From assembly GCA_903858815.1 (NCBI GenBank), contig CAIOKE010000238.1:1-64000 (forward strand): a DNA stretch of 64,000 nt, written 5' to 3'. Of this stretch, positions 10,187-64,000 are shown piece by piece (position 1 is the first letter of the stretch; each line of letters begins with the position of its first letter). The notes beneath the pieces were generated by a model. That model was not told the DNA's origin. It ran no database searches and was given only the letters and a program-made list of their open reading frames with translations. The translations under genes and the position numbers were made by a program. This DNA is from an uncultured Planctomycetaceae bacterium (GTDB taxonomy: Bacteria > Planctomycetota > Planctomycetia > Planctomycetales > Planctomycetaceae).

Positions 10187-10244
10187 GCTGGTTCTCCTGT
10201 GTTTGCCTGCAACTTCTGCTATCCAATACGCCGCAACGACAGAT

Positions 10245-11570: not shown

Positions 11571-11592
11571 TCGTTCAGGTTTCTCAACAGAA

Positions 11593-41487: not shown

Positions 41488-42525
41488 ATGATTTTGCACA
41501 ACCTGCGTGTAGAGAACTTTCGCGGGATGACCAATGTCCACTTCAACGGTCTTGCCCCGCTGAGTATCGTTGTGGGCTCGAATAATGCAGGCAAAAGTAC
41601 TGCTCTCGAGGCAGCAACATTACTTCTGCGACCATTCGACCCGTCACAGTGGGTACAGGTGGCCAAACACCGCGACATTGACATGAATCTTGTCGATGGC
41701 CTTTGGTCCTTGTTCCCTACCGATACTCCCCTGTATCTCGAGGATGGACCAAAGCAGACGAGGCCTCTGCGTGTTAGTGGTCGCGTCTCTAACGCTGAGC
41801 GTGAACTGACTGCTGAAGCAATTGCCAGTTTAAGTTGGGACGCGGAATCGGATCAGGAAGTGACTCTTGATGTACGGGCGACTGTCAAAGCCGATGGACA
41901 CGAACCCAAACGGCATAAAATGGAGTTCAGGCACAAATCGAGGGCGGAGTTCGGCACGGACGTCTTTCTCTTCCGCGCGTTTACTGTCACACCGGCAACG
42001 CATCGCTCAACGAGTCTCCTGGTCGATCATCTGAGCAATGCAATTGACGACGGGCAAAAGGGGCTTGCCGTAGATTTGCTCAAACGTTTTGATGAGGATG
42101 TTGTGGACCTTGATGTAAGTACAAGCAGGGGGCGGTATGCAGTTCGTGTGACCCACAAATCAAGAGGTGTGGTGGACCTCGCATCGTTCGGCGATGGTAT
42201 GCGAAGAGCCACTGCCCTGGCCCTGTCCCTGGCCAGGGCACATGGTGGGTTACTTCTGATAGATGAGATTGAAACTGGGATTCATCCGACAATTCTGCCT
42301 GACATTCTCTCGCGTCTGCTCGTAGCCGCAGAAGAGGCTGACGTTCAGTTGCTGGCAACAACGCATAGTCTTGAAGCGATTGACGGATTGCTCGCTGCCA
42401 CGATGGATAGGCCTGACAGCACCGTCGCATTCTACGTTAAGAAAACCAAAGACGGGCACGTTGTACGTCGCTATGACCAGCCGACTCTTGTTTCACATAG
42501 AGAGGCAGGGCTTGATCTGCGATGA
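41488..42525 (+). CDS. OLD/RecF-like ABC-type ATPase embedded in the BREX operon
   Basis: This 345-residue ATPase starts MILHNLRVENFRGMTNVHF, the usual opening of OLD/AAA_15/AAA_21 proteins. Walker A GSNNAGKST lies at residues 30-38, the ABC signature SFGDGMRRATALALSLA from 233, Walker B GLLLIDEIETGIH with Asp259-Glu260, and the H-loop LLATTHS with His293. The coiled-coil arm is short. It carries no TOPRIM domain itself; the next gene, overlapping by 4 bp (ATGA), supplies a TOPRIM-like protein. Split ATPase plus TOPRIM pairs are known in phage defence (PARIS AriA/AriB; Gabija GajA is the fused analogue). It sits between brxC and pglX and is probably co-expressed with BREX. Confidence 0.88.
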   Translation: MILHNLRVENFRGMTNVHFNGLAPLSIVVGSNNAGKSTALEAATLLLRPFDPSQWVQVAKHRDIDMNLVDGLWSLFPTDTPLYLEDGPKQTRPLRVSGRVSNAERELTAEAIASLSWDAESDQEVTLDVRATVKADGHEPKRHKMEFRHKSRAEFGTDVFLFRAFTVTPATHRSTSLLVDHLSNAIDDGQKGLAVDLLKRFDEDVVDLDVSTSRGRYAVRVTHKSRGVVDLASFGDGMRRATALALSLARAHGGLLLIDEIETGIHPTILPDILSRLLVAAEEADVQLLATTHSLEAIDGLLAATMDRPDSTVAFYVKKTKDGHVVRRYDQPTLVSHREAGLDLR

Positions 42526-43328
42526 AACGTTTTATCTATATCATCACCGAGGGCGTACACGATGTGTTGCTGATCTCACAGGTTCTGCAGCGTGGTTTTG
42601 GCCTCTCCGTGATCAAGAACGAAGCGGGGTTGCCTCAAAACGCCAAGAGCTGGTTGAAGATGTTTCCCTGGCCAATTAAGGGCGACATCACGCGCCGAGC
42701 TGTCCCAACTCCGGAGTTCCTCGAGAACGACGCGGTCTTTGTGGGAATCAGTAATGCCAGAGGGATCGGAGAGATCAGAAAACGCCTCAGTGCTGATTTC
42801 GAGGCCTTCTATCGTGAAGATGGCTGGTTCCCTGGTGGTTTAGGAATAATCCTTGATACCGACGACAAAGCTCCTGAAAAACGTTTTCGGGAGTTCGCAG
42901 ATCTGATTGAGCAAACCGGGTTTCCGCGGCCAACTGTGCTTGATTCTGTGGCAGAGTTAGGAGAACAGTGTGCCGGTGTGTTCTCTTTTCCCGGCGGTGG
43001 CCAACCGGGCACGCTGGAGGATGTCCTGATTCCGCTTGCTGGCACACGATTTCCTGATCTGCATGCACATGCAACTTCGTTCGTGCAGACTTGGCAACAG
43101 CAGGATGCAGCTTCCCCGTCAAATGATCACGAGGAATTACGGAAGCCCAAAGGCGGGCTCAAGGCGACACTTTCCGCAATGGTCAGTCTACTCAAACCCG
43201 GTAAGGGCCTTGCGTCTTCCATCGAGGATCAGAGATGGATTCCTGATGACATAAGCAGCTGTCTGCCTCTGAATCCGCTGATGGCGTTTCTTAACGCACT
43301 TCTGCTCGAACGCAAAGACGAGAACTGA
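42522..43328 (+). CDS. TOPRIM-like partner of the embedded ATPase (DUF3226/DUF4435-like)
   Basis: This is a 268-residue protein. FIYIITEGVHDVLLISQVLQ has the TOPRIM-type acidic residue Glu10 followed by G..D. GGLGIILDTDDKAPEKRF gives the DxD motif (Asp112, Asp114) on a predicted strand. These are the metal-binding signatures of TOPRIM nucleases or primases, and the layout resembles the DUF3226 family. With its partner it would make a two-subunit OLD-type nuclease or toxin. It starts inside the ATPase stop (ATGA) and ends 8 bp before pglX. Catalysis is inferred from two motifs only. Confidence 0.7.
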   Translation: MKRFIYIITEGVHDVLLISQVLQRGFGLSVIKNEAGLPQNAKSWLKMFPWPIKGDITRRAVPTPEFLENDAVFVGISNARGIGEIRKRLSADFEAFYREDGWFPGGLGIILDTDDKAPEKRFREFADLIEQTGFPRPTVLDSVAELGEQCAGVFSFPGGGQPGTLEDVLIPLAGTRFPDLHAHATSFVQTWQQQDAASPSNDHEELRKPKGGLKATLSAMVSLLKPGKGLASSIEDQRWIPDDISSCLPLNPLMAFLNALLLERKDEN

Positions 43329-46300: not shown

Positions 46301-47758
46301 TTCAAGATAGCCATCGAGCTACTTGCATTGAGTGAGCTCGCAGACCGAACCGCGCAGTCGTTTTTTGGATTCTCCGATGAGCTACTTGCCCATCTCTACG
46401 GCCCCCTTCCAACCGCCTATCCTAAAGCAGTCGGGGATTTGCACGCCGATGTTTTGTTGCTCGCGGAAGACAAGCTGGTTGCAGAAGCACTGAAACGACA
46501 TGGACCGCGTCGGCAACTTACAAAGAAAACATACGTCGCCAATCGGCGGCTTGAGTTGCTGTGTCACATATTTGAGGTGCATCCCGAAAGTATCGTTGCA
46601 GCCTTGAATGCGCTCAATTTGTGGAGTGAACTTCATCCCTCGGTGGCTGAAGATGAGATGTCTGTAGCGCTCGGCTGTGTCTTCGGCCGCTGGGACATCC
46701 GGTATGCCACGGGCGAGCGGCCGGCGCCGGAGTTGCCGGACCCGTTTGCGCCGCTGCCGGTCTGCCCGCCCGGGATGCTCCAAGGCGACGACGGCCTGCC
46801 ACTTTCGCCCGCAGCCGGCCGCCGGCTGCGGACCGAGGGCCGTTACCCGCTCGACGTGGCTTGGGACGGCATTCTCGTGGACGACCCGGAGCACCCGCTC
46901 GACCTCGAACGCCACGTCCACACCGCCCTTGCGGTAATTTGGGGCGAGCGAGCCGACGCGATTCAGCAAGAAGCCTGCGAACTACTCGGCGTGCCAACTT
47001 TGCGAGAATGGTTCCGCCGTCCCGCGTCTTTCTATGCGGATCACCTCAAACGCTACTCAAAGAGCCGCCGCAAAGCTCCGATCTATTGGCCCCTGTCAAC
47101 TCCATCAGCGACTTACACAGTCTGGCTGTACTATCACCGTTTTGCGAAAGACACGTTCTTCAAGGTCAGCGAAATCGTCAAAGAGAAGCACAACCACGAA
47201 CAGCAGAAGCTTACGCGTCTCAAATCGGAATTCGGAGACTCCCCCACGCGAACTCAGTCCAAAGAGCTGGAGACACAGGAGAAGATCGTCGCTGAGATCA
47301 CGTCTCTTCTGGAGGAAGTCAATCGGATCGCACCACTTTGGAACCCCAACCTCAATGATGGCGTGATCATCAACTTCGCACCGCTTTGGCGACTTGTTCC
47401 GCAGCACAAGGTATGGCAAACGGAGTGCAAGGCCTGCTGGGATAAACTGGTCGCTGGTGACTACGACTGGGCCCATCTGGCCATGCACCTGTGGCCGGAA
47501 CGCGTTGTTCCCAAGTGTGTCGGCGATGCAAGCCTGGCGATCGCTCACGGCCTCGAAGAAGTCTTCTGGGGTCAGGACGATCGCGATCGATTCCAGCCAA
47601 AAAAGAAGCCGCAAGGTGGCTGGCAGCCGGTGATTGATGAACTCGTGAAGGAACGCTCCAGCCCCGCTGTGAAGGCCGCTCTGAAAAGCCTGCTGGAAGC
47701 TCCGGTGGCTTCTTCAGGGACAAAAGGAAGCCGCGGTCGCCGGGGGGCAGCAACGTGA
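43337..47758 (+). CDS. pglX: BREX adenine-specific DNA methyltransferase PglX
   Basis: This 1473-residue enzyme methylates adenine in a short target to mark self DNA. The N-terminal region (residues 1-230) carries RFVALRMLEARGML and NQFFTPRYVVEFLTDNTLGR. Motif I is LDPACGSMHFG at 319-329, and motif IV is NPPFG at 588-592. The target-recognition region follows, then a C-terminal domain with a coiled coil (about 1280-1340) and the WNPNLNDGVIINFAPLWRL block typical of PglX. Base composition changes abruptly: about 44971-45105 and 46680-46990 are much richer in GC than their surroundings, and the stretch between is AT-richer, which suggests exchange of the recognition domain. Its stop overlaps the next start by 4 bp. 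Confidence 0.95.
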   Translation: MEQETRNKLQRATQQIRRLLEDEFAEQLEGTFDILANGKILPEAGKHLDARQRLTRQKLVDAIEHVKACGKKPQEAVAQYTREAAFTFLNRFVALRMLEARGMLQECVARGDQSNGFKEFCGLAPGLASVDDGGYRLYLECLFDELSVEVKVLFDRRESASLLWPRRGALNTVLEILAQEDLAAIWAIDETIGWVYQYHNDPDERKKMREESSAPRNSRELAVRNQFFTPRYVVEFLTDNTLGRIWYEMCQGQTRLKDQCRYMVRRPTEIFLQLGELAPETAGTTLSDSAERQTQEELLRQPVHIPHRALKDPREIRLLDPACGSMHFGLYAFELFSVIYDEAWEIAHSPDAAARSAATFAPFVTFAATFANKALFLREVPRLIIQHNIHGIDIDPRAAQIANLAIWLRAQRSWHESGIDRKDRPQISRSNIVCAEPMPGEKGMLRDFVEQQFPESERPAFAFLLEKIFDKMSLAGEAGSLLQIEEEIRTAVTEAHSLARKQSEKRQKQLFADTNQPRRQQMEFDLRGLTDDEFWNAAEQRIYDALEAYAEQAENGGGFQRRLFADDAAQGFAFIDLCRKRYDVVVMNPPFGRRSDPSSIYFDEHYSTFKPDMGLAFVDGFSHRLEERGQLGALTSRTFLAGGSFDDWRKDVLLSSRPVRVLLDLGIGVLDDALVETCAYVVQHQKTEHGRFLRALEATDKAASVAAFFSQDGDGGQGVHAFLTPLAAMRDLPTSIMAYWLPGDVAVTIKKIGTLESIQAATKHGVQTTDDFQFMRLAWEVPQGSVSSEGRWPVLAKGGEYAPYFDNLHLCVDWMSRGGRLKEYLAAKRMRTQGSPDWTPWMNSHEDYFRAGLTFPARTASDFCPRILPAGCVFTASGQALLFPKDAQAFGYLGGAFTRAFKIIVDAFVCSGDNSVSGSAANTYRTGLVNALPLPTDVNGRDAQEIGEQSVHLAFKVAATEETSLNFRFSSGRLRSLKSYAATTVESEFKIAIELLALSELADRTAQSFFGFSDELLAHLYGPLPTAYPKAVGDLHADVLLLAEDKLVAEALKRHGPRRQLTKKTYVANRRLELLCHIFEVHPESIVAALNALNLWSELHPSVAEDEMSVALGCVFGRWDIRYATGERPAPELPDPFAPLPVCPPGMLQGDDGLPLSPAAGRRLRTEGRYPLDVAWDGILVDDPEHPLDLERHVHTALAVIWGERADAIQQEACELLGVPTLREWFRRPASFYADHLKRYSKSRRKAPIYWPLSTPSATYTVWLYYHRFAKDTFFKVSEIVKEKHNHEQQKLTRLKSEFGDSPTRTQSKELETQEKIVAEITSLLEEVNRIAPLWNPNLNDGVIINFAPLWRLVPQHKVWQTECKACWDKLVAGDYDWAHLAMHLWPERVVPKCVGDASLAIAHGLEEVFWGQDDRDRFQPKKKPQGGWQPVIDELVKERSSPAVKAALKSLLEAPVASSGTKGSRGRRGAAT

Positions 47759-49014
47759 ACCACAGTTCGTCATCGATCCGCGTTCAGTTTACGCACCTGT
47801 CATGTGAGCTGAAAGATGCCGAGCTGTCTCGACTTGGCAGCCCGCACGTCAGCAAGAAGGAAGTTGGGCAAACGCTGCTGCCGCTTGTGACGCAACGAAC
47901 GAGGAGACCTGTTCGCGAACTGGATTGTCGATTTCAACGTAAACAGATCATTTGCGCGAACGAAGTCTTTCCGGAATCTGTCAGCGCAGATCCATTGGCC
48001 GATCTGGAGATCTGGGACGAATGGCGACAGAACATCCGGCGGTTTCCGTTTCCCGGGTTGTTTAGCCCGCTTGGTATCACAGGTCAGGCGAGCAAATCGA
48101 CGAGTCCCACATCGGTCGGGGTCCTCGGGGAAATCATGACGGGGCTGTTCAGTCAGGCCTATATTTCGCCCTGGGTCATTGTTCGCCCGATTCGCCGTTG
48201 GCCGGATTTCATCTTCTTCTGCCGCGACGAACGTTACGCATTTGTCGAGTCGAAAGCATTCACCGGAAGCTCGGATGAATCCGACGACTTGCTGTCGCGG
48301 ATTCCCAATTCGACATTGCAGGAATGCCTGGACGATGCGGTCAAACAGCTGAATGCAGATCCATTCGTCACCGTCTGGTTTTCGTTTACGGAAATATGTC
48401 GCATCGATCCGATGGAACTGCGAGTCACTTTTCTTGAATTGAATACGTCCGCAGAGCGTCGGACATCGCGTGCGTCTGAAAGAATTGTTCCAGAGGCCGT
48501 TGTTCATGGTCTGGCAGAACGGGCCGCATCGTCGGGTGCCGCCCGGGTTTTCCAGAGCGAGCGAGATTTATCCGAGACCGTCTACGGCCGGAAAGATGCG
48601 AAGTCCCGTTTTCAAAAGAGAGTCACCGATTGTTCCGTTGATGAGGTACCTCGAGTGCTGGAAGCTGCAGTGCCAGAGACACTGTATGAAGCTGCTTCGA
48701 AAGAAGTCAGCGAAAAGGCTCGAGAACTTGCCGGTAAAGCAAACCCCAAAGTGTCTGATCCTGGCAGGAGAATGACGGCAGCCAAGGAACGAGCTGTGGA
48801 GGGAGAGCTCGGTGAGCTGCGAAGTTTTGGCGGCGATCGTCTGTACCTGGTCGACCTGACGGTCGAGCAACGCAGTCTGCTGGAACGGGATTGGCAACCC
48901 GGCTGGGAACAGGCCGTTCAGAAGTGGAGAATATTGCATGGCACAGAGTTCTGGCGATGCAGCAGTGCGGCTGTGGGGCTGGGGCCGTCAGAACTGGCCG
49001 GGCGGCTCGATTGA
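47755..49014 (+). CDS. Unknown protein with a PD-(D/E)xK nuclease-like motif between pglX and pglZ
   Basis: I do not recognise this 419-residue protein as a BREX component. Residues 124-168 contain VLGEIMTGLF (Glu126), RRWPDFIFF (Asp151) and YAFVESKAF (Glu165, Lys167). This matches the E...PD...ExK pattern of the PD-(D/E)xK nuclease fold, with strands in the right places. The C-terminal half is helical and charged, without known motifs. The gene overlaps pglX by 4 bp and pglZ by 77 bp, so it is tightly integrated in the operon. If active, it could be the DNA-cleaving partner that most BREX systems lack. That function is inference. Confidence 0.6.
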   Translation: MNHSSSSIRVQFTHLSCELKDAELSRLGSPHVSKKEVGQTLLPLVTQRTRRPVRELDCRFQRKQIICANEVFPESVSADPLADLEIWDEWRQNIRRFPFPGLFSPLGITGQASKSTSPTSVGVLGEIMTGLFSQAYISPWVIVRPIRRWPDFIFFCRDERYAFVESKAFTGSSDESDDLLSRIPNSTLQECLDDAVKQLNADPFVTVWFSFTEICRIDPMELRVTFLELNTSAERRTSRASERIVPEAVVHGLAERAASSGAARVFQSERDLSETVYGRKDAKSRFQKRVTDCSVDEVPRVLEAAVPETLYEAASKEVSEKARELAGKANPKVSDPGRRMTAAKERAVEGELGELRSFGGDRLYLVDLTVEQRSLLERDWQPGWEQAVQKWRILHGTEFWRCSSAAVGLGPSELAGRLD

Positions 49015-53694: not shown

Positions 53695-56600
53695 ATGGGT
53701 GGGACCTCAAGTGCTGGCCGACACGTTCCGGCGGGCGGTTCAGCGACAATCAACGGCGTCCTGTACCAAATGCTGTGGACTCTGCTTCGCGCGTCACGAG
53801 CCCGCTTGGTAAAGCCGACACTCTTCGAGAACAGTCAACTTAAAGAAGTTACGCTTGTTCTTGAGCCCGGTGGAGGTGGTGGGGATTTAGTGGTAAAGGC
53901 AAAGGAGAGGCGTTCGGTCGAACAGTTGAAGGCACGACCAGACGGCAGTACATGGTCTTTGAGGGAAGTTGTCGAGAAAGTTATTCCCGATCTCTATTTG
54001 GCAAATCTCAAGGACAATTCCCCAGCAAACTGTCGATTTGTGACGGAAGGACGAATGGGGCGGTGGGCAAAAGAGTACGAATTTTTTCGTTCATTTTCGA
54101 GTTCTGCGTGTCCTGAAGATCCACTCTCAGATATCGATGACACCCTTCCGCTGAGAACAGTCAAACGCAGGAAGGATGATTCAGGCTCAACTGCTTCAAC
54201 TTCTGCCTCATTCTGGGATCGCGATACGTATACAGCAAGGCAGCTTTTCGTGCAGGTTGTGACTGAGGTTCGCAATCGCAACTCGGTTTCAGAGAATGAG
54301 ACGGAGATCCAAACGCAAAAGGGCCTCCGATCAGTATTGGCCAACTTTGAGTTCTTTGGTGGCCAGTTCATGGAGAACGTCCAAAAAGAGATCGATGCTC
54401 ACTTATTGACGGTTGTGCCACGAAACGACGACATACCGGTAATCCGCGATGCTCTCGCGATGGAGCTCGCGAGACTCGCGACTCAAGGTAATGCTGAAAT
54501 CGACTGTAGGGAGGTCTTTGAAAAAATTGGGATCAATGCAACTCCGCTCACCGAATGGGCTAGCATTCGACGGAGGAGTCAAAGGATTTCGGACCGCTAT
54601 TTTCGGATTCTCGGATACCAGCCTTTGCGTGACGTTCGAATTGCAACCGCAAAACAACTACTCGACTTTTGGCCCCAAGAGTTTCCGATTCTTGCCATCA
54701 CGGGAGAAAGTGGTTCAGGAAAATCGTGGCGAGCGTATGCGATTTGTAATTTGGCACAACATGGCGAATCGCTTTGCGTAATCGTTTCTGCCGGAGCAAC
54801 ACTAGATGAAACTCTCAATCGGGCTGCAGTCAGAATTTGGCAGGAAATCGCGGGTCATGACGTTGCAATTCCGCTCTCTCAGATTGCCAAGAGAGTTGGC
54901 GCTGTTGTCGGAACGAAGCCGAACCCTTGGTTGACGCTTGTAATTGATGGCATCACCGACCGTCAGCACGCTGGGGAATTGATTCGTCAGCCATGGGAAG
55001 ACTGGGGAATTCGCCTCGTGTTTACGGTCAGCCAGCGAGAATCAGCTTCGCTGTTGAATCAGTCGAAAGCACGTTGCAAGGTATCTGTTGTCGAGAACTT
55101 TACGACTCGGGAACTTCATGATTACCTTGCTGAAGTACTCGGCGAACACTGGCCAGAAATGCCGGATTTCGTGCGAAACTTCCTGAAGGTGCCATTTCTC
55201 GCAGACCTATATCGCCAAATTGTATTGGACTCCGGCGACCAGAATTGGAATCCGCAGTCAGAATACGACATGTGCGCCAAGTTCTGGTCGAGAGCGCAAG
55301 AATTGGAACCATCGGACGCCGACATACTCATTCGGCTTGGGGAAACGTTCTTGCTCGATGGCGCAGACTGCTGGCCAATCCGGGAAGTGAACGAGGCGGG
55401 GGCTGACAATGCCACGATTAAGAGGCTTGAGCAAGCCGGTTGGTTGCGAACTAAGCCATCGATAACAGGAATATCGGTGGAATTCGTGCATCTGCGGCTT
55501 CTGAACTGGGTCTGCGCAGTCGCTGTGGTCGCCGCTCAGCAAAGAAAGAGCCCTGATCTTGAACAACTACGCAAAGATGTTCTGTCATTCTTCGAAGGAT
55601 CATCACCCAAGCATGGCCGAAAGCTGGGCTTCGTACCCATGGATGTTATTTGGCTGATGTGTCAAATGCTAGACCTTCGAAATGAGGTCCCCGCGGTGAT
55701 CGCTTCACTTGAAGGCGACTACAGTCGTTCCAAGGCACTTTATGAGCACTTGTTACCAACCTTAGGTTCAACCGTGATTGATGGTCTGCTTTCGCGGTTG
55801 AGGTCAAAGATCGACGATTGGTTTGTGCCTTCGCTCATTACGAACGGCCTCGGGAAGATCGGTGGCGAGGCTGTGGTCTGTGCGGCACTCACGTTCCTTG
55901 ATGACGAGAATCCGTTCCTGCAACTGTCCGCCTGCGATGTTTTTGCAAAGTGTCCGTCCGCTGCACCCCTTGATCAACTGTGGCAACTGCATAATGCTTG
56001 CCAATCGATTCCAGAGAGGTTTTTGCGGGGTCGAGAAAAACACAGTGCCCACATCTTGCGCAACAGAACCTTTCCTGCGTTACTGGAATGTTGTCGCGTA
56101 TCGCCTGACTGGCTGACTTATGCCATTGAACGATCAGATCCCAATAAAGAGTGCATTGCTGATCTGGCATACCTTTTGTCCGGAATTGAACCGCAGCACG
56201 GAGGGCAATTGTGGAGGAGGGCTAAGCCAATACTCTTCCAAAAGGTCCCCGCTGAGCATCACCGTGCACTTGCAGTCTGCATTGACAGTTTTTCTGATGA
56301 AGATGAGGTTCAGTGGCTTATCGAATCGCTCGACAAAGAGCACTTTATTGCAGTGACCGCGGCGAAGGCATTGGCGAGATTTCGTCCTGTCGACTTAATT
56401 AACGAACTTCACAGAGTCCCATTACGTGGATTGATTCTGGGCCGTGCTGCCGTTTTTGATCTTCTTTTCGCAACAGAACCGACTGCTACCCGGCGTCGGC
56501 TGATTGAGCTCATGGATAAGAGCGATAATCTGTGGGCCGTGGCTGCACTTTATGATGGGCGCTGGCATCAAATTGATGTAGCGACTTTAGATGTGTTGCT

Positions 56601-58377
56601 GGTCGACTTGACTAAGCAACTTGAGATTCTTCTTTCCGGGCCTGACTGGGGCGATTCAGAGCCATTGGGACGCGAACTGCATCTACTGGCTCAAAGCCAG
56701 ACTACAGTTTTGGTGCAACATCTTCGGGGGCAATGTGGAACCTCTCTAGAGACGAGGTTGACGGAGTTCGTGCTTCGCATCGGTATACGATCTTGGGACG
56801 ATACATTCTTGCTACGAAGCGCGCTGGCAGTATTGTTCAGAATTGCAGGTGACGGGTTCACGCAGGTTGTGAATGAAATGCTTAGAGCTGGTTCCAGGCA
56901 TATCCGCCTTGAAGCAATCCTTCTTGCGGACCGGAGACCAAATGAAGAGACTTTCAAACGGCTGGCGGAAATCACTTCAGATCTGGAAAGGCGCAATGAT
57001 AGCTACCTCGAACAAAGCAGGGCCGCAGTCATCCTCGCATCGCATGGCAGATGGGACCATGTCCTTGATTACGTCCAAGCAGTAGGGATGCAATCGTTGA
57101 TCAGAACACTGGACTTTCCAGGCCTCGAAGATCTCCCGAGGATGGGCATCCGTCCCCAAAGTACATTGCTGAATAGCGTGTCAGATCGAATACAATCGGA
57201 CCCGACTCGCGTTTCGGAGGGGCAAGTAATAGCGTTGGGCTTTGGCCCACCTGAGTTTGGAGCGATTGTTCGCAGTGTCGCAACGCTTTCCGATCCAAAG
57301 TCCGACGTTGCTCTTGCTTGCGTTGTCGCACTTGACATGATCCATGACAAAGATCCTGGAAGCGTAAGTTTCCTGCAAGCTCAATTGCAGATTAAGAAAC
57401 ACAACTTCGTTGCCACAAATGCACTGATCACGAATGGTACTCAGGTTGCACTTGACGCGTTAGAGGCCTTCGTTGGCGTCGATGTGTCCGACGCCGTCGC
57501 AATCAATTTGGTCAGGCATTCCACTGAGAAGCAGCGAGCTCTTGGCAAGATCTGTTCTACTGTGGTGCGTGCTGTATCAGGACGACGATCGGTCGATTAC
57601 GTTGCTGAGTTGCACCGATTAGTCAAGGGAATCCGAGACTCTGCGACTGCCAAGGCAATTCTCTCACAACCAGTAGTTGCAGAGTATTTGGCTGCAGAAG
57701 CGTTCGCTGATGAAGGAAACATCTGGCTTACCGGATCGAAGTATTGTGCGATCAAGTGCCTTGAGTACATCGATCCTGCGTCAGCATTGGTCGCAGCAAA
57801 GGCCGCGCTGCTAAACCCTTCTGGACGTGATCGAGATTTCTATCCGCCGGTTGTTGCAGAGCTTGATCCTGAGCACGCACCGAAGTTTTTGATTGACCTA
57901 CTCGCTATTGAGACATCTGAATTAGTACGAAAGTCGATCGGCAGAACGATACATTCGCTGGATGCAGAGGCAGAAATCCTCAATGCCATGAAGTCCGCAG
58001 ATGCAATGGCTCAGCTTGCAGGCTGTTTCGCCGCTGGTTGGTTCAGACCAAGCGCTGCCATTTCAGAGCAGCTGATTGCCAAAGTCGGTTCCTCTTCGGG
58101 TGCGATCTCAAATGCTGCGGTAGCAGCCGTCACCCAATTACGGTTACGCAGCGAATGCTACCTGCTTGGTCAAGAAATCTTGCAGACCAACGATGCGTTC
58201 GAACGGTGGCTGTACCTGAGCTGCCTATTAGAGTTGGCAGACTGTGGCGATGATCATCATCTGTGGCCGGTTGGCGGTCCCGTGATTGGAGATGCCATCA
58301 CATCGTTTCAGATCAGCTTTGCTAACAAGCAACTTGAGAAGCGCCGCGCAAAGGAAAAGGAACGCCCGCTTGTATAG
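53695..58377 (+). CDS. STAND/Avs-like NTPase with N-terminal nuclease-like domain and helical repeats
   Basis: This is a 1560-residue protein. Residues 13-110 resemble the DUF4297/Cap4 dsDNA endonuclease start: GGSATINGVLYQMLW, then GGGGDLVVKAK (Asp64) and SVEQLKARPDG (Gln77-x-Lys79), a PD-(D/E/Q)xK pattern. A STAND-type NTPase follows, with Walker A GESGSGKS at 337-344 and Walker B LTLVIDGITD with Asp418. The remaining 900 residues are helix-turn-helix repeats of HEAT/TPR type that would sense a ligand. This order (nuclease, STAND, repeats) is that of Avs-type antiviral sensors, which recognise a phage protein and cut DNA. GGAGA precedes the ATG. It follows brxL by 43 bp. The partner phage protein is unknown. 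Confidence 0.75.
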   Translation: MGGTSSAGRHVPAGGSATINGVLYQMLWTLLRASRARLVKPTLFENSQLKEVTLVLEPGGGGGDLVVKAKERRSVEQLKARPDGSTWSLREVVEKVIPDLYLANLKDNSPANCRFVTEGRMGRWAKEYEFFRSFSSSACPEDPLSDIDDTLPLRTVKRRKDDSGSTASTSASFWDRDTYTARQLFVQVVTEVRNRNSVSENETEIQTQKGLRSVLANFEFFGGQFMENVQKEIDAHLLTVVPRNDDIPVIRDALAMELARLATQGNAEIDCREVFEKIGINATPLTEWASIRRRSQRISDRYFRILGYQPLRDVRIATAKQLLDFWPQEFPILAITGESGSGKSWRAYAICNLAQHGESLCVIVSAGATLDETLNRAAVRIWQEIAGHDVAIPLSQIAKRVGAVVGTKPNPWLTLVIDGITDRQHAGELIRQPWEDWGIRLVFTVSQRESASLLNQSKARCKVSVVENFTTRELHDYLAEVLGEHWPEMPDFVRNFLKVPFLADLYRQIVLDSGDQNWNPQSEYDMCAKFWSRAQELEPSDADILIRLGETFLLDGADCWPIREVNEAGADNATIKRLEQAGWLRTKPSITGISVEFVHLRLLNWVCAVAVVAAQQRKSPDLEQLRKDVLSFFEGSSPKHGRKLGFVPMDVIWLMCQMLDLRNEVPAVIASLEGDYSRSKALYEHLLPTLGSTVIDGLLSRLRSKIDDWFVPSLITNGLGKIGGEAVVCAALTFLDDENPFLQLSACDVFAKCPSAAPLDQLWQLHNACQSIPERFLRGREKHSAHILRNRTFPALLECCRVSPDWLTYAIERSDPNKECIADLAYLLSGIEPQHGGQLWRRAKPILFQKVPAEHHRALAVCIDSFSDEDEVQWLIESLDKEHFIAVTAAKALARFRPVDLINELHRVPLRGLILGRAAVFDLLFATEPTATRRRLIELMDKSDNLWAVAALYDGRWHQIDVATLDVLLVDLTKQLEILLSGPDWGDSEPLGRELHLLAQSQTTVLVQHLRGQCGTSLETRLTEFVLRIGIRSWDDTFLLRSALAVLFRIAGDGFTQVVNEMLRAGSRHIRLEAILLADRRPNEETFKRLAEITSDLERRNDSYLEQSRAAVILASHGRWDHVLDYVQAVGMQSLIRTLDFPGLEDLPRMGIRPQSTLLNSVSDRIQSDPTRVSEGQVIALGFGPPEFGAIVRSVATLSDPKSDVALACVVALDMIHDKDPGSVSFLQAQLQIKKHNFVATNALITNGTQVALDALEAFVGVDVSDAVAINLVRHSTEKQRALGKICSTVVRAVSGRRSVDYVAELHRLVKGIRDSATAKAILSQPVVAEYLAAEAFADEGNIWLTGSKYCAIKCLEYIDPASALVAAKAALLNPSGRDRDFYPPVVAELDPEHAPKFLIDLLAIETSELVRKSIGRTIHSLDAEAEILNAMKSADAMAQLAGCFAAGWFRPSAAISEQLIAKVGSSSGAISNAAVAAVTQLRLRSECYLLGQEILQTNDAFERWLYLSCLLELADCGDDHHLWPVGGPVIGDAITSFQISFANKQLEKRRAKEKERPLV

Positions 58378-58452
58378 ATTTGTTGGCAGAAATGAATGCT
58401 CGATCGCCTTGATCGTACGCATGCCAGAAGTATTCAGGGAGTAGTTCAACGC

Positions 58453-59805
58453 GTGTCAACTATGTTGAAAGCTTTGAAGGCTCCTCCGGGAGCACTGTTC
58501 TGGTCTGCTCCGTTGAGTGCGGATTCTGATTTCACAGCTGAAGATCCGCTTGCACTGGACTATCTGGGGCAGCAGGTGGGACTCTGGTTGTTTCAGGGAT
58601 TCACAACGCGAACAGGACGGGCGCAGAATTACGCGGTTGTGCTGTACGGTCTGTCTCTTGCTGACAAGGCCGTGCGAAAATATGGGTACCTTGGCGACGA
58701 TGAGACACGAACCAGATTGTTCGAACGCTGGGAACGATTCTGGGCGCTGGCAACTCTGGAGTCCAGGAACGGAGAGCTTGAACGCGGAGATGAGGACGCC
58801 ATGCGCGGTGTCCGGGGGGCAACCCGTGCATGGTTTTCCGGACCAAAGCCACTGCCGCTCGATTTTCCGCTAATTTCCCGTCAAAGCGAGCTGGGAGGGC
58901 TTGGTGCTTATCTGACGTCGCTCCGTGAATATGGCCTCGTGTTTTCAGGATCACTCCGGGTGACACCAGCCGCGAATGGCATTCTGGAAGCGTTCTGGTC
59001 GGAACAAGGCGAGCGAGAAACGGCTCATCTTTACGAAGACTACGCAATGGAGGCGTTAGATCTGTCGCGGTCAAAGATTGACCGCAAGTTTGGGCGTCTG
59101 ACTCTTCGAGGTATTGGTGAGGCGTCTCGATTGTCATCCCTCGTGAAACGCAATCGAACCCAGCAGCAAACACGGCTCTGGGAGGTCCTGTTCCTTGGCG
59201 CTCGCGATGGATCCACATTGCCGCTTGCCGAGCAGCTGATCAGTGCTCACAAGGATGGAGTTGACGACGCGGAACCACTCCTTGAAAACTTACTGGTTGG
59301 GCGATGGGGAACTCTTTCTTCAGCCGTGTCAGCCAAACTCGACGTTGCACTGGCATTCGGTAGGCTTGCTCGGTTGCTCCTTGATCGCTTTGACCGAGCC
59401 TACGGTTACGTGGATCAGCATGGATGGGTGGCAGTTGCGGACGCTGTCGCTAATGCCGCTTTCCCTGCGGATGAGATGGAAGAGTTGAGGTTTGCCTGCA
59501 ACGGCGTTCTGGAAGCGACGGAAAGCAATCGATTTCGTCAGTTGCAGTTTCATGGGCCAGAGCTACTCACGCTTTTATCCAAGCTTACGTTTTCCGGGCC
59601 CCGTGATTGCATTGATCACTTGCTGCAATTTCACCGAAGTGTGCAGCGATCGCGTCGCGGTGGCGGTGCCTGGTTAAGGGATGAGCAGGGAAAGATCGTC
59701 ATGCAGGTGCCAGGGTACAACGGCTACAAGAGCGATGCGGCATTCCCCGGCTTCAAACTCAACGTGGTTCGGCAGTTGCTCAACGATCTTGGGAGGCTGT
59801 CATGA
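58453..59805 (+). CDS. Unknown protein, first gene of a PLD/SNF2 module
   Basis: I do not recognise this protein of about 450 residues. The frame is open from an ATG at 58396, but that has no ribosome-binding site. GTG 58453 has AGGGAG 11 bases upstream and is preferred; ATG 58462 is close by. Visible segments include FWSAPLSADSDFTAEDPLAL, LDYLGQQVGLWLFQGFTTRT near the N-terminus, RGGGAWLRDEQGKIVM and FKLNVVRQLLNDLG at the end. It is mostly helical, soluble and without a nucleotide-binding motif. A middle section (residues 130-200) may be winged-helix-like (LGAYLTSLREYGLVFSGSLR). It overlaps the PLD gene by 4 bp, so it is probably a subunit or specificity factor of the same machine. Confidence 0.7.
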   Translation: MSTMLKALKAPPGALFWSAPLSADSDFTAEDPLALDYLGQQVGLWLFQGFTTRTGRAQNYAVVLYGLSLADKAVRKYGYLGDDETRTRLFERWERFWALATLESRNGELERGDEDAMRGVRGATRAWFSGPKPLPLDFPLISRQSELGGLGAYLTSLREYGLVFSGSLRVTPAANGILEAFWSEQGERETAHLYEDYAMEALDLSRSKIDRKFGRLTLRGIGEASRLSSLVKRNRTQQQTRLWEVLFLGARDGSTLPLAEQLISAHKDGVDDAEPLLENLLVGRWGTLSSAVSAKLDVALAFGRLARLLLDRFDRAYGYVDQHGWVAVADAVANAAFPADEMEELRFACNGVLEATESNRFRQLQFHGPELLTLLSKLTFSGPRDCIDHLLQFHRSVQRSRRGGGAWLRDEQGKIVMQVPGYNGYKSDAAFPGFKLNVVRQLLNDLGRLS

Positions 59806-61961
59806 AAATTGCTTCCGGGCGTGTGCTCGATCGATTGCCCTGTGAGGAGCCATGCCTCGGGGCAGTTTTCACCAGCTACAGTTTCGATCCGGGATTCTTT
59901 GAAGACCACGTTCTGAGGGCCATGCTGCGGCTGGTTTCTGATCCTGTTGAACAGGGTGCGCGGTATCACAGCGAAGCCCGCAGTGCGCTGCAGGAAACAC
60001 CTGTGGCTGTGATCGTTGACGCGGGCGAGAGGCGTCCCGGCCGACGGCTACCGTACGATCTGCTGGAAGTCTCGGATGTCGTGTTCCATCCAAAATCTGT
60101 CCTGCTGCTGTACAAAGACCATGCCTGTCTGACGATCGGTTCCGGCAACCTGACGTTTTCGGGATTTGGCGGGAACACGGAGCTATTTATCACCCTTGAC
60201 CTCCGATATGACGACGCTGCCGATGTTGGCCTGCTGCGAGCGTTCGACTCGCATCTCCATCGAATTTCCGGCCTCACGCGACAGAAGGGGACTCAGCTCT
60301 CGTTGTTTCGGAACGAACTGGCCCTCCGAATTGGCACTGTCCCAGCAGATTCCACGTCGTCCACAGTTGTGCTGTTGGATTCAACCACCGCCCCCATCAT
60401 CGAACAGCTGCAGGCGTTGCTGCCGCAGAATGCGATCATTGAACGGGTTGGAATGCTCGCCCCGTTTTACGAACGCGATGATGACGTAGAACTGGACGTC
60501 ACGTCTGTTTTCGGTGCCCTTGCACCTCAGGTCTCGGACGAGGCAATATTGGATGTGGGAGTTGCGTGGGATAATGCTCAGGTATTTCCGGATGGCGAAG
60601 TGGTTCCTCTGGAAAACGGCCTTGGAAGACTCTGGGCATGGTCGCAAGAAGGCGACTCTGGCAGGTTCGTCGAATATCTCGTACCGACTTCGATCGGCAG
60701 CAATACTCTTGGCTATTCCGATCAGAGAGGAAATGGTCGCCGTTGGCCGATCAACGACGTTCACACTGCCGCAGAAGAACGACATTTTTGGATGCTCCCC
60801 CAGCCGATCGCCTTTGCACCAAAACAGGCTTTGGAGGCTGCGAAATCCCGATTCGCGGATGTCCGCCTATGGCTGCATCCGGCGACACGGATGTTGGAAG
60901 GTCGTCCAGTTCATCGCCCGCTCCATGCCAAGCTGCTTCTCATTGCATTCTCGGTCGGAACGTCAAAGGGAGCCCTGGTTCTGGTTGGGTCGGCGAATAT
61001 GTCACGCCGTGCGCTGCTGCTCAAAGCAGGACCGGGACAAGGCAATGTTGAACTCGGTTTGGCCTTTCAGCTTGAGGGCTCATATTCCCTGATCGACTTT
61101 GTCCCCGAATTGGTGTGTACTCCATCATCTGCGATGGAGTTGAGGGAGAGGGATTTTCCTGAAGCTGCACGCAACTTTGCGATGATGATTGAAACAGCGA
61201 TCCACGATCCGGCAGAATGTACTCTCGCAGTCACCTGGGCGGAAAGCGCGACGGATCTCCCGGCATGGCGATTGACCTACTGCGGAAATGAGATTGCCCA
61301 GGCAGCCACGCCTCCATCCGGCAAACTGCTTATCAACGATTTTGTGCTGCAGCCATCGTCTGCCGAGCTGGTGCTGCATGTGGATGGGCGTGAGTTTCCA
61401 GTGCCGATCCTGGTCACAGACCTCATTGCATTGCCTGCGGTTGCTGTGGGGACTGGTCCTGGCCTGAACGAGCTCCTGATGCTGCTTGGTCGGAGAATCG
61501 GGGCTGAACGAGCGGTTCAGATCGCCGAGCGTAAGTCGATCGCCGACGGGGAAAGTGATTCACTGTCTGCTTTCTTCGGTGACGGGTTCAGCCCGACCGA
61601 TGTGTTTCGAGCGTGGTGGGCAGTGGCCGAAGATTTGCAGGATCCGGAATTGTCGGTGCTGGCTTTCCGTCTTCGTCTGGAAGGTGCACTGGGAGTTGGC
61701 GCCGCCTGGGCCCGCATGTTGGATGCGGCCGTGACCGAGCATTCGCTTCAGCCGTTCGAAGTTTGGTTTTACGGGGCCGAGTTGCTGCGGGAATTTGGGA
61801 ACATCAAGCTCGCCCCTGCGGTTGATCGGGCGGCCAGGGAAGCGGTGCTCGCCAAATTCAGAAACCGAATTCAGGCTGACCTGGCCGGTCTCAAGATCAC
61901 TGATGACAACCGGCCCTGGATGCAGATCGTTCGTAAGTTTTACGGGGAGGATCGCGCATGA
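59802..61961 (+). CDS. Phospholipase-D-fold (HKD-like) nuclease-family protein
   Basis: This 719-residue protein carries two PLD-type half-sites: VVFHPKSVLLLYKDHACL with His96 and Lys98, followed by IGSGNLTFSG; and RPLHAKLLLIAF with His375 and Lys377, followed by VLVGSANMSRRALL. The pairing of HxK with a downstream GS(A/G)N motif is that of PLD-family nucleases such as DISARM DrmC and Bfil-like enzymes. The C-terminal 280 residues are an unassigned helical domain. ATGA overlaps join it to both neighbours, which implies a stoichiometric complex with the SNF2 helicase. The substrate (DNA rather than lipid) is inferred from that partner. Confidence 0.85.
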   Translation: MKIASGRVLDRLPCEEPCLGAVFTSYSFDPGFFEDHVLRAMLRLVSDPVEQGARYHSEARSALQETPVAVIVDAGERRPGRRLPYDLLEVSDVVFHPKSVLLLYKDHACLTIGSGNLTFSGFGGNTELFITLDLRYDDAADVGLLRAFDSHLHRISGLTRQKGTQLSLFRNELALRIGTVPADSTSSTVVLLDSTTAPIIEQLQALLPQNAIIERVGMLAPFYERDDDVELDVTSVFGALAPQVSDEAILDVGVAWDNAQVFPDGEVVPLENGLGRLWAWSQEGDSGRFVEYLVPTSIGSNTLGYSDQRGNGRRWPINDVHTAAEERHFWMLPQPIAFAPKQALEAAKSRFADVRLWLHPATRMLEGRPVHRPLHAKLLLIAFSVGTSKGALVLVGSANMSRRALLLKAGPGQGNVELGLAFQLEGSYSLIDFVPELVCTPSSAMELRERDFPEAARNFAMMIETAIHDPAECTLAVTWAESATDLPAWRLTYCGNEIAQAATPPSGKLLINDFVLQPSSAELVLHVDGREFPVPILVTDLIALPAVAVGTGPGLNELLMLLGRRIGAERAVQIAERKSIADGESDSLSAFFGDGFSPTDVFRAWWAVAEDLQDPELSVLAFRLRLEGALGVGAAWARMLDAAVTEHSLQPFEVWFYGAELLREFGNIKLAPAVDRAAREAVLAKFRNRIQADLAGLKITDDNRPWMQIVRKFYGEDRA

Positions 61962-64000
61962 CCACGCGAACGCGGGAATGGCTGCGGAGCTTTTTGAAGC
62001 TGGGCGCTCGTATGGAAAAGGACGGGATCCCCGCAACCGACATCGAGCGACAGGAGGACACGGTGCTGCGGGCGATTGATCTGCTGGAGGATCGACCCGG
62101 CATTTTGCTGGCAGATGAAGTTGGAATGGGAAAGACCTACGAAGCGCTTGGAATTGCCGCCGACACCCGTCACCGGCGGCCCCGGAGTCGGATCGTGATC
62201 GTGACACCGGGACCAGATCTGAACCAGAAATGGTACAAGGAATTCGGGCAGTTTCGCGACATGTTCGATTTTGGTGATCAGGTGTTTGAGGCCCGGCATC
62301 TGTCCGAATTTGTGCAAAACGTGCGGAATCATCCGGTGGTGGTGGCCCCGGTCACCGTGTTCCAGAGTGGCCGAGGTTCCGGAGATCAAACGTACCTGTT
62401 GTCGCTGTACTTTCACTGGAAACAGCTGCGCGGGCCTACGACAAGAGCGATCATGGCACGAGTTGACGGCGGATCGATGGAACGCGTTGATGTAAGGACG
62501 ACCCTGTTTCTGAACGCGTTCGACTACAACACCGTGCGGCCACATCTGGAAAAGACCTTTCGCCGAGGACGCTCAGGCGGTGCTGCCGGGCTGGATGATT
62601 TGTATGAGCAGGGCGGACTTTCGGCTTTTGAGAACCTGCGGGCGGTCAGGACTGCGCTCTATCGCGCCAGATTCATACTGACCGGCCGTCTGATGCCCAT
62701 GATCGATCTGCTGATCGTGGATGAAGCCCACAAACTCAAGAACCCCGGCTCACTGCGAACACGTGCCATGCGGGAGGTCTTTGACCGTCGGTTTCGAAAG
62801 GCATTGTTCCTCACGGCAACACCATTTCAACTGGACGTGACTGAACTCAAAGAGATCTTCTCCCTGTTCGCACGTGCCAAAGGGGCTGCCGTCGATGTGG
62901 CTGAGCAGGCAGAGGAATTGCTGGCGAACATTAAGGAGTACAAGCGAACCTACGAGGACTTTCAGAGCACCTGGTCGTCTCTTGATCCGCTGGTAGCCGC
63001 CCGTTTTCGCGACGCCTATCAGAGCGAACCGGCTGCAGCGAAACAGCTTGATGATCCCGGTATTGGGGTCGTTGTCCGTCAGATTGAGGCCCTGCAGAAA
63101 CTCAAGCAGCATTCCATCGAGCCGGGTTTCCGTCGATGGATGATCCGCAGCCTGCGCGAAGACAAGCGGACGTATCGCCGTCAGGTACCGAAGCACATTC
63201 GCGCCAACGGGCCGGAATTTTTACCGTTTCTTATCTACGAACGTTTCATTTCAGAACTGTTTCGGCGCAAGCGACACACACACAAGGCAGCAGCCGAGAT
63301 CAATATGGTTTCGTCCTATGCAGCCGCCAGGCAGGGCACACTCCTTGCGGAAAACGATGACATTCCGGTGGAGGCAGAGGCGTACCGCACACTGCTCAGG
63401 CAGATCCTTGGCCACATGGAATCCGGACCACACGAACACCCGAAGCTGAAAGATGCCATCAGTGATGCACTCGATGCCGCCGATCGTGGTGAAAAGACAC
63501 TGATTTTTTGCTCTCGGATCGCAACTCTGGAACAGCTTCGCCGAGAACTTGACAGCATCTGGGAATCTCGGCTGCTTGAACGATGGCGTAAGGTCTATCC
63601 GTTTGCTGATTCAGACGACATATTCGATACGCGCGAGGCTGATGAATCGCGGCACCGCGGACGACATGCACTTCTGCAGCAAAGATTCCGCAGTTCACAG
63701 GACGCTCTCTGTCTGGCCCTTCGTGAGTATCATTGCCGGAGCGTCATTGATATCGCCGACTGGGCGAATGAACGGCTTCATGAAATCACCCGGCGAGCCA
63801 ACGATCTGCTGCAGACCTTACGAGTTGGAAAGACATCAGCTGAACGCACTGACTTCCAGCTGGCAAAACGTTGTGTTGAGCAGGCTGCCGCGATGCTGTG
63901 GCTGGAAAACAATCCGGCAGCGCCGTCATTCAAAACTCTGCAGAATCTTTGCGATCCAGGTTATCTCCGGTTCGGGCTGGATCTGGAGCACGACGACTAC
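61958..64000 (+). CDS. SNF2/superfamily 2 helicase, 3' part beyond the window
   Basis: An open frame of 681 codons runs from the ATG at 61958 (overlapping the PLD stop as ATGA) to the window end without a stop. The protein starts MTTRTREWLRSFLKLGARME. It has Walker A LLADEVGMGKT near residue 60, motif Ia-like IVIVTPGPDLNQKWYKEF, motif II VDEAHKLKN at 255-258 (DEAH), motif III LFLTATPFQLD, and the start of the second RecA domain (EKTLIFCSRIATLEQLRREL). It is an SNF2/RapA-like dsDNA translocase. With the PLD protein it would form a DNA-translocating nuclease. The C-terminal helicase motifs V and VI lie beyond or near the cut end. Confidence 0.88.
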   Translation, partial: MTTRTREWLRSFLKLGARMEKDGIPATDIERQEDTVLRAIDLLEDRPGILLADEVGMGKTYEALGIAADTRHRRPRSRIVIVTPGPDLNQKWYKEFGQFRDMFDFGDQVFEARHLSEFVQNVRNHPVVVAPVTVFQSGRGSGDQTYLLSLYFHWKQLRGPTTRAIMARVDGGSMERVDVRTTLFLNAFDYNTVRPHLEKTFRRGRSGGAAGLDDLYEQGGLSAFENLRAVRTALYRARFILTGRLMPMIDLLIVDEAHKLKNPGSLRTRAMREVFDRRFRKALFLTATPFQLDVTELKEIFSLFARAKGAAVDVAEQAEELLANIKEYKRTYEDFQSTWSSLDPLVAARFRDAYQSEPAAAKQLDDPGIGVVVRQIEALQKLKQHSIEPGFRRWMIRSLREDKRTYRRQVPKHIRANGPEFLPFLIYERFISELFRRKRHTHKAAAEINMVSSYAAARQGTLLAENDDIPVEAEAYRTLLRQILGHMESGPHEHPKLKDAISDALDAADRGEKTLIFCSRIATLEQLRRELDSIWESRLLERWRKVYPFADSDDIFDTREADESRHRGRHALLQQRFRSSQDALCLALREYHCRSVIDIADWANERLHEITRRANDLLQTLRVGKTSAERTDFQLAKRCVEQAAAMLWLENNPAAPSFKTLQNLCDPGYLRFGLDLEHDDY

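What the first reader, a model, noticed from the sequence alone, without database searches (positions are those of the whole stretch)
58453..64000. Three-gene module of unknown protein, PLD-fold protein and SNF2 helicase, with no named system match
The genes are linked by ATGA overlaps and contain a nuclease-like PLD protein and a DNA translocase, the ingredients of DISARM-like defence, but no methyltransferase, DrmA or DrmB is visible. The first protein has no family I recognise. Placed directly after BREX and an Avs-like gene, the module is a good candidate for an undescribed defence system.
Basis: partly seen in the sequence, partly recalled or inferred. Interest (0 to 1): 0.8.

Follow-up and report, generated by a model that had tools for sequence, protein, structure and literature searches.

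The report
Divergent Azaca-type three-gene defence cassette
The three genes form a real, co-inherited unit that belongs to the same broad kind as the known but unexplained Azaca anti-phage system, and the protein that looked familyless is a distant relative of Azaca's first protein.

Summary
Confirmed: three co-directional genes joined by ATGA overlaps encode A (469 aa, no database family), B (719 aa, two-site PLD enzyme) and C (SNF2 translocase). C is cut by the window but complete in the contig (962 aa, ends 64846). The next gene is convergent, so no fourth co-directional gene follows.

The module is not without kin. The same A-B-C order occurs in 9 of 12 loci found with A, plus a Methylocystis plasmid. 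PADLOC's PDC-M27 and the named system Azaca (ZacA/B/C) share the layout. B and C match their models. A does not at the standard level, but iterated profile searches started from A or from M27A converge on one superfamily holding A, M27A and ZacA (DUF6361). Of its 33 members, 31 are followed by a PLD gene. In trees of A, B and C, this family, M27 and Azaca are three separate clades.

Best reading: a new clade of Azaca-type modules, probably an ATP-driven DNA-degrading defence complex. Function is untested.

Such cassettes recur directly downstream of BREX (4 loci, three lineages) and beside DISARM or type I RM (2 loci each). None of 6 later loci with at least 8 kb of upstream sequence had BREX. 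Self/non-self recognition is unknown.

The parts
58396..59805 (+). Gene A: 469 aa (about 450 aa if the start is near 58453), ZacA/DUF6361-superfamily first protein; predicted mostly helical, function unknown
   Evidence: ORF; relatives; superfamily by iterated profile search; model mean pLDDT 71.6
58534..58647 (+). Segment of A (residues 47-84) carrying the superfamily pattern D-[PE]-L ... [LF]-P-G-x-[TS] ... R-A
   Evidence: D50 in 93% and L52 in 96% of 28 rows; the rest of the pattern is looser and M27A departs from it
59802..61961 (+). Gene B: 719 aa PLD phosphodiesterase with two active-site halves (residues about 1-450), Tdp1/PLD3-like fold, plus C-terminal helical part
   Evidence: model pLDDT 74.8; Foldseek; VIA-align Z 20.6, 320 residues, rmsd 3.8 to yeast Tdp1
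60087..60149 (+). First active-site half of B: H96-x-K98 ... G113-S114-G-N116
   Evidence: H96, K98, N116 present in all 30 rows kept of 33 (the three rows left out are named under Tried and rejected)
60924..60998 (+). Second active-site half of B: H375-x-K377 ... G396-S397-A-N399
   Evidence: H375, K377, G396, S397, N399 present in all 30 rows kept of 33
61958..64000 (+). Gene C: SNF2 (RapA-like) translocase; continues to contig position 64846, 962 aa in all
   Evidence: nearest solved relatives RapA
62114..62137 (+). Walker A motif of C, DEVGMGKT (residues 53-60)
   Evidence: invariant in 10 of 10 sequences
62720..62731 (+). DEAH motif of C (residues 255-258)
   Evidence: invariant in 10 of 10 sequences

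Best explanation
The module is one functional unit: a divergent, separate clade of Azaca-type systems (ZacA-superfamily protein + PLD phosphodiesterase + SF2 translocase). Shown here: the three genes are kept together, evolve together, keep both PLD active-site halves and the ATPase motifs, and the first protein is a distant ZacA/DUF6361 relative. Inferred: the products form a complex that attacks invading DNA. C, once engaged, uses ATP to move along double-stranded DNA; B supplies the nuclease; A is the adaptor or sensor that recruits or licenses the other two. It would work like the single-chain enzyme SauUSI (PLD + translocase + recognition domain), split over three proteins. How self DNA is spared is not known. 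In most copies I detected no methyltransferase beside the module (only the N6_Mtase and PglZ families were searched), so recognition of DNA ends, a replication structure or a phage protein seems more likely than a dedicated methyl mark.
For: Unit: complete A-B-C in 9 of 12 loci fetched with A alone (L004's B is broken by unread bases), plus a Methylocystis plasmid. Six of 6 further loci found by the B profile carry a superfamily first gene directly upstream; four of these six also have the SNF2 gene. In 6 of 8 later loci (L068-L072, L075) a superfamily first gene abuts a PLD gene (in L073 and L074 my ORF pruning hid A). Co-evolution: trees of C, B and A each give this family, M27 and Azaca as one side of a branch, with matching inner branching where resolved. 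A as ZacA kin: with the A profile, ranks 14-20 of 1664 ORFs are all first genes of PLD modules. Iteration from A or M27A reaches M27A and ZacA; 31 of the 33 members are followed by PLD. The Methylocystis A matches the ZacA model at E=0.0022. B: ZacB and M27B models hit 9 of 9. C: ZacC and M27C models hit 10 of 10. Catalytic residues conserved. Fold Tdp1/PLD3, SauUSI among Foldseek matches at E=4.7e-4. SauUSI mechanism: PMC7913695, abstract and outline.
Against: No experiment. A does not reach the ZacA model at the standard level (no match in G000) and only weakly M27A (E=0.023). Profile-profile probabilities are low (2.6% ZacA, 14.6% M27A; single-comparison p 0.018 and 0.0018). Starting from ZacA the iteration stops at 13 members, with a member of the A family just outside (E=0.0041), and one reversed decoy entered the run started from A at iteration 6. 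The B iteration also took in one chance ORF. The fold of A has no solved match. The third gene is not universal: L045 and L046 have A-like + PLD without an SNF2 gene in the stretch read, and L075 has a lone A-like ORF. The trees are quick ones with long branches. The complex and each protein's role are inferred.
Confidence: 0.62

Rival explanations
1. Structure-sensing suicide or clearance system like Hachiman: C patrols DNA and holds B back; damage or phage intermediates release B, which degrades DNA broadly.
For: A helicase-nuclease pairing without a methyltransferase is the Hachiman layout (PMC12278908: start of abstract in the listing, one passage). Among 26 genomes or records, N6_Mtase hits lie within 20 kb of a module only at G206:C6, G206:C4 (a BREX), G162:C24 and W04; that model missed the window's PglX, so this undercounts.
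Against: B is a PLD enzyme and C an SNF2 translocase, not HamA/HamB; a third protein A is present in all complete copies. No data on toxicity.
Confidence: 0.25
2. Accessory effector of modification-based systems: the cassette gives BREX, DISARM or type I RM an extra nuclease and reads their methylation as the self mark.
For: Module within 10 kb downstream of PglZ, same strand, at 4 of the 8 PglZ places in 26 genomes or records, in three lineages; BREX gene sets. DISARM DrmA/DrmB at the 3' end of Azaca in L068, DrmA upstream of Azaca in L022. Type I RM around L031 and upstream of L046.
Against: No BREX gene at phmmer 1e-8 in 8 later loci; in 6 of these at least 8 kb upstream was read, in L072 and L075 the contig ends about 1 kb or less upstream. 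Defence islands cluster anyway; the 26 genomes were chosen for carrying modules.
Confidence: 0.12
3. A DISARM or Dpd relative that has lost parts.
For: DrmC, DrmD and DpdE model matches of B and C; PADLOC's PDLC02572, labelled DrmA, matches C at 2.3e-24.
Against: M27C scores 171.7 bits on C against 103.6 for DrmD and 83.4 for PDLC02572. The profile of C finds no solved DrmA at E <= 1e-5, whereas true DrmA proteins do. No MZB domain in the whole assembly. C groups with M27 and Azaca counterparts in co-evolving trees (no DrmD was put in them).
Confidence: 0.03
4. DNA repair or stress operon rather than defence (Tdp1-like B removing adducts, RapA-like C clearing DNA).
For: Best fold match of B is Tdp1; C's nearest solved kin is RapA.
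Against: Patchy distribution (1 of 149 own-phylum genomes, the window's own; 1 of 349, that one being the search centre; 9 of 195), a plasmid copy, and neighbours that are defence genes in several loci.
Confidence: 0.08

Closest known systems
Azaca (ZacA-ZacB-ZacC)
   Same: Gene order, PLD second protein, SF2 ATPase third protein, near or overlapping genes; B and C match the ZacB and ZacC models in 9 of 9 and 10 of 10 sequences; A is a distant ZacA relative.
   Different: ZacA is DUF6361; A does not match DUF6361 or the ZacA model; separate clade in all three trees; C is an SNF2/RapA-type protein, whereas the one ZacC scanned with Pfam (L023) matched Helicase_C and DEAD.
PDC-M27 (PADLOC: M27A, M27B, M27C; 'candidate' is my recall of the prefix)
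   Same: Same order and similar sizes (L028, L029); C's best model is M27C (6.3e-51); the WYL+DUF2779 neighbour pair is shared by L004 and L028.
   Different: M27A is only weakly similar to A (E=0.023; p=0.0018); separate clade in the trees.
SauUSI and similar PLD-translocase restriction enzymes
   Same: PLD nuclease coupled to an ATP-driven DNA translocase (PMC7913695, abstract and outline); Foldseek match to B.
   Different: SauUSI is one chain with its own target-recognition domain; here three chains and no recognised reader domain.
DISARM
   Same: Has a PLD protein (DrmC) and, in class 1, an SNF2 protein (DrmD) (recalled; model names).
   Different: No DrmA, DrmB or methyltransferase in the unit; no MZB domain in the assembly.

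Membership tests
Azaca | ZacA (DUF6361) first gene by model match | tested here: not met
   No match of PDLC03828 in G000; no DUF6361 hit
Azaca | First protein homologous to ZacA at superfamily level | tested here: met
   Iterated profile searches from A and from M27A include ZacA proteins; not reciprocal from ZacA, where an A-family member is the best excluded at E=0.0041
Azaca | ZacB-type PLD protein | tested here: met
   ZacB model 9.7e-12 on B; 9 of 9 members; a partial, domain-level match
Azaca | ZacC-type helicase | tested here: met
   ZacC model 2.4e-30 on C; 10 of 10 members; M27C scores higher
Azaca | Same clade as Azaca in gene trees | tested here: not met
   Separate clades
Azaca | Anti-phage activity | not testable with these tools
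   Needs an experiment
PDC-M27 | M27A first gene at significant level | tested here: not met
   E=0.023 for the window protein; 4 of 10 members hit, best 0.0046
PDC-M27 | M27B and M27C | tested here: met
   1.3e-5 and 6.3e-51
PDC-M27 | Same clade as M27 in gene trees | tested here: not met
   Separate clades
DISARM | DrmA and DrmB | tested here: not met
   MZB 0 hits in G000; the unit and the contig to its end show none. PADLOC's PDLC02572, labelled DrmA, matches C at 2.3e-24 below M27C, but the profile of C finds no solved DrmA
DISARM | DNA methyltransferase in the operon | tested here: not met
   The unit has three genes; the PglX upstream belongs to BREX
Dpd | 7-deazaguanine synthesis and insertion genes | not tested
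   Only the DpdE match of C was seen
BREX accessory | Constant association with BREX | tested here: not met
   4 loci with BREX upstream; none in 6 later loci with at least 8 kb upstream read

The most novel reading that the evidence does not exclude
ZacA-superfamily/PLD/translocase cassettes are a portable effector that has plugged, several times independently, into the downstream end of modification-based systems (BREX above all, also DISARM and type I RM); there they supply the DNA-cleaving arm and use the host system's methyl mark as self signal. In the window the cassette would be the nuclease arm of the BREX island.
Probability: 0.12. Interest if true: 0.8.

Novelty: new variant of a known kind. 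Interest (0 to 1): 0.52.

Why it matters
A 2026 review still lists Azaca's mechanism as unknown (PMC12926258, one passage). Joining A, M27A and DUF6361/ZacA into one superfamily, with a conserved pattern and an almost unvarying PLD partner, turns separate orphan names into one testable machine and gives a diverse alignment for structure prediction and mutagenesis. The recurrent place next to BREX, DISARM and type I RM suggests a direct test of whether such systems recruit extra nucleases. A January 2026 survey of BREX reports the HKD nuclease in BREX primarily on BrxL (PMC12839542, passages).

Tried and rejected
DISARM and Dpd: rejected on score order and the absent MZB domain. Contig-end artefact or hidden fourth gene: rejected, C is complete and the next gene is convergent. 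Fold of A: Foldseek against PDB and BFVD and VIA-align gave nothing usable (no E <= 0.001; best Z 4.8); the absence of a match is not evidence of a new fold. PDB sequence search with A: best E 0.9; with B: none at 0.1. Relatives of A or M27A in viral contigs: none by pattern scan and tblastn. Literature: ZacB+ZacC, PDC-M27, DUF6361 and PADLOC+'candidate defence systems'+PDC gave 0 papers; ZacA+phage gave 2 unrelated papers; the 2022 paper I recall as describing Azaca is not held. BREX as a constant partner: rejected. Intrinsic terminators or promoters splitting the operon: fewer hits than in shuffles, uninformative.

Rows dropped: one search counts leave out L022|10240-11643 (a chance inclusion) and the two pieces of the broken L004 B gene, so 30 of 33. 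Tree B left out the same three. Tree A left out the fragments L012, L013, L024, L025 and L032. Tree C holds 27 rows; L024, L032, L045 and L046 were not in it. L014 (54 residues) was taken as a spurious match. The 1664-ORF set leaves out duplicate loci. In one search my ORF pruning hid the A genes of L073 and L074. Of the matches I fetched the new G621, G559 and G711 but not G691, G692 and G693. The searches left out G208 and G209 (truncated A genes).
Full report
Observation. The three ORFs are at 58396-59805, 59802-61961 and 61958-64000 on the + strand; both overlaps read ATGA. The window's contig (G000:C238) runs to 66212; C ends at 64846 (962 aa) and the next long ORF lies on the opposite strand. 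Upstream, 18 bases (or 75, with the later start) separate A from a 1560-aa gene with HEAT repeats, and before it lie BrxC, PglX, PglZ and BrxL.

Families. A has no Pfam, NCBIfam or PHROG match. Its only PADLOC trace is PDC-M27A, E=0.023 (4 of 10 members hit it, best 0.0046). B matches PLDc_2 and the models ZacB (9.7e-12) and PDC-M27B (1.3e-5); 9 of 9 members match both. The complete C matches PDC-M27C (6.3e-51), then DrmD (2.3e-30) and ZacC (2.4e-30), in 10 of 10 members. A further model labelled DrmA (PDLC02572) also matches C (2.3e-24), but the profile of C finds no solved DrmA. ZacC is named as an Azaca protein in a passage of PMC12278908. Azaca is listed among anti-phage systems in PMC10121019 and PMC10952713 (passages), the latter noting a PLD-like domain.

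The unit recurs. A scan of one genome per species with A alone gave 12 loci; 9 have A-B-C in order. That count takes L004, whose B gene is broken by unread bases, as present. L012 and L013 hold truncated A genes and L014 a 54-residue match. A plasmid of Methylocystis sp. MJC1 carries A (36%), B (ZacB model 2.3e-11) and C (37%) across its origin. The family is rare and scattered: 1 of 149 own-phylum genomes, the window's own; 1 of 349 in the phylum of the Caballeronia genome, that genome itself; 9 of 195 in the phylum of the Myxococcus genome (including three already known and some partial or distant matches). No relative was found in viral contigs.

The same layout under other names. Azaca loci in planctomycete genomes and plasmids show DUF6361 + PLD + helicase. 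PDC-M27 loci in Rhodoferax and Vibrio plasmids show M27A + M27B + M27C. A profile of B searched in 12 genomes found, besides the main modules, six more PLD genes; all six have a superfamily first gene directly upstream and four also have an SNF2 gene.

Where A belongs. Direct profile-profile comparison is weak (A-ZacA p=0.018, probability 2.6%; A-M27A p=0.0018, probability 14.6%), though colinear over most of the length. I then searched 1664 ORFs from the loci held at that point. With the A profile, after its own 13 members, the next seven ORFs are all first genes of PLD modules: L044 (6.4e-8), L043 (0.0016), L028 (0.0032), L045 (0.0036), L029 (0.0099), L047 (0.053) and the ZacA of L031 (0.89). 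Iterating at E<1e-3 converges on 33 ORFs. With reversed decoys added, the run from M27A gives the same 33 and no decoy; the run from A gives them plus one reversed decoy at iteration 6; the run from ZacA stops at 13, with the Methylocystis A best excluded at 0.0041. Of the 33, 31 have a PLD gene downstream on the same strand, overlapping or within 4 bases in 30 and 363 bases away in the broken L032; the two without are the truncated L012 and L013. Conserved positions include D50 (93%), L52 (96%), E113 and G138 (100%) and Y172 (96%) of 28 rows. I regard the kinship as well supported but distant.

Co-evolution. Trees of C (27 rows), B (30) and A (28) each place this family, M27 and Azaca as one side of a branch (support 94-100). 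Inside the family the branching matches where resolved: Methylocystis outermost; then Polyangiaceae and the Myxococcus pair in unresolved order; then the pair L007/L008; then the group holding the window with Fuerstiella. They are quick trees with long branches outside the family.

Likely biochemistry. B's model (pLDDT 74.8) aligns over residues 1-450 with Tdp1 (Z 20.6, 320 residues, rmsd 3.8) and PLD3 (Z 20.3). Both histidine-lysine-asparagine halves are intact in 30 of 30 unbroken rows. In the window's B the aspartate of the usual HKD motif is missing from both halves (L and A stand there), as I recall for Tdp1. SauUSI, a PLD-translocase restriction enzyme, is among the Foldseek matches (4.7e-4); its abstract describes target recognition that starts ATP-driven translocation and shredding of DNA. 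C keeps the Walker A, DEAH and later helicase motifs in 10 of 10 and is nearest to RapA among solved proteins. A's model is mostly helical (pLDDT 71.6) without a solved match. I therefore propose a three-chain nuclease-translocase with A as adaptor or sensor. The presence and conservation of parts are shown; the complex, the order of events and the trigger are inferred.

Neighbourhood. BREX genes lie upstream, same strand, in four loci of three lineages: the window, L010/L050, L023/L049 (Azaca) and L045/L048. PglZ occurs at 8 places in 26 genomes or records, four of them within 10 kb of a module. Those genomes were chosen for carrying modules, and the window came with BREX in view. Eight loci fetched afterwards without regard to BREX have none; in six of them at least 8 kb upstream was read, in L072 and L075 the contig ends about 1 kb or less upstream. 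DISARM DrmA and DrmB lie at the 3' end of the Azaca in L068, convergent, and DrmA upstream of the one in L022. Type I RM genes surround L031 and precede L046 (HsdM; HsdR and HsdS by eye). A WYL + DUF2779 pair lies near three lineages: L004, L028 and L042 (L062). A QatC-like gene (L026) and an Mrr_N-AAA_5 gene (L008) add to the defence context.

Verdict. A real, co-inherited defence-island unit; a new clade of Azaca-type modules; not DISARM. Function untested.

Noticed in passing
window 53695-58377: 1560-aa gene between BrxL and A: HEAT_2 1.5e-6, weak AAA_22, no PADLOC hit at 1e-5; by eye the N-terminus looks like a nuclease-STAND fusion.
   Followed up: partly
window 41488-43328: A gene pair matching PADLOC PDC-M38A (4.4e-52) and PDC-M38B (2.4e-8) lies inside the BREX operon between BrxC and PglX.
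   Followed up: no
window 47755-49014: 419-aa gene between PglX and PglZ without Pfam or PADLOC match.
   Followed up: no
L002:4051-5211 (-): Gene convergent with C whose sequence looks like an FGE-sulfatase-type domain (motif recalled, not searched); runs off the contig end.
   Followed up: no
L046:4587-8772 (-): ZacA-like + PLD pair without an SNF2 gene in the stretch read, directly after a type I RM operon whose HsdR (by eye) may serve as the translocase.
   Followed up: partly
L045:3490-8261 with L048: ZacA-like + PLD pair directly after a BREX operon ending in BrxD-BrxHI, no SNF2 gene in the stretch read.
   Followed up: partly
L075:9220-18357: A lone A-like ORF, and nearby another ZacA-like + PLD pair followed by a 714-aa gene and what looks like a DUF262-type gene instead of SNF2 (DUF262 by eye).
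   Followed up: no
L004:6777-9335, L028:1-2455, L062:2473-4908: WYL regulator + DUF2779 pair beside three different lineages of the module.
   Followed up: partly
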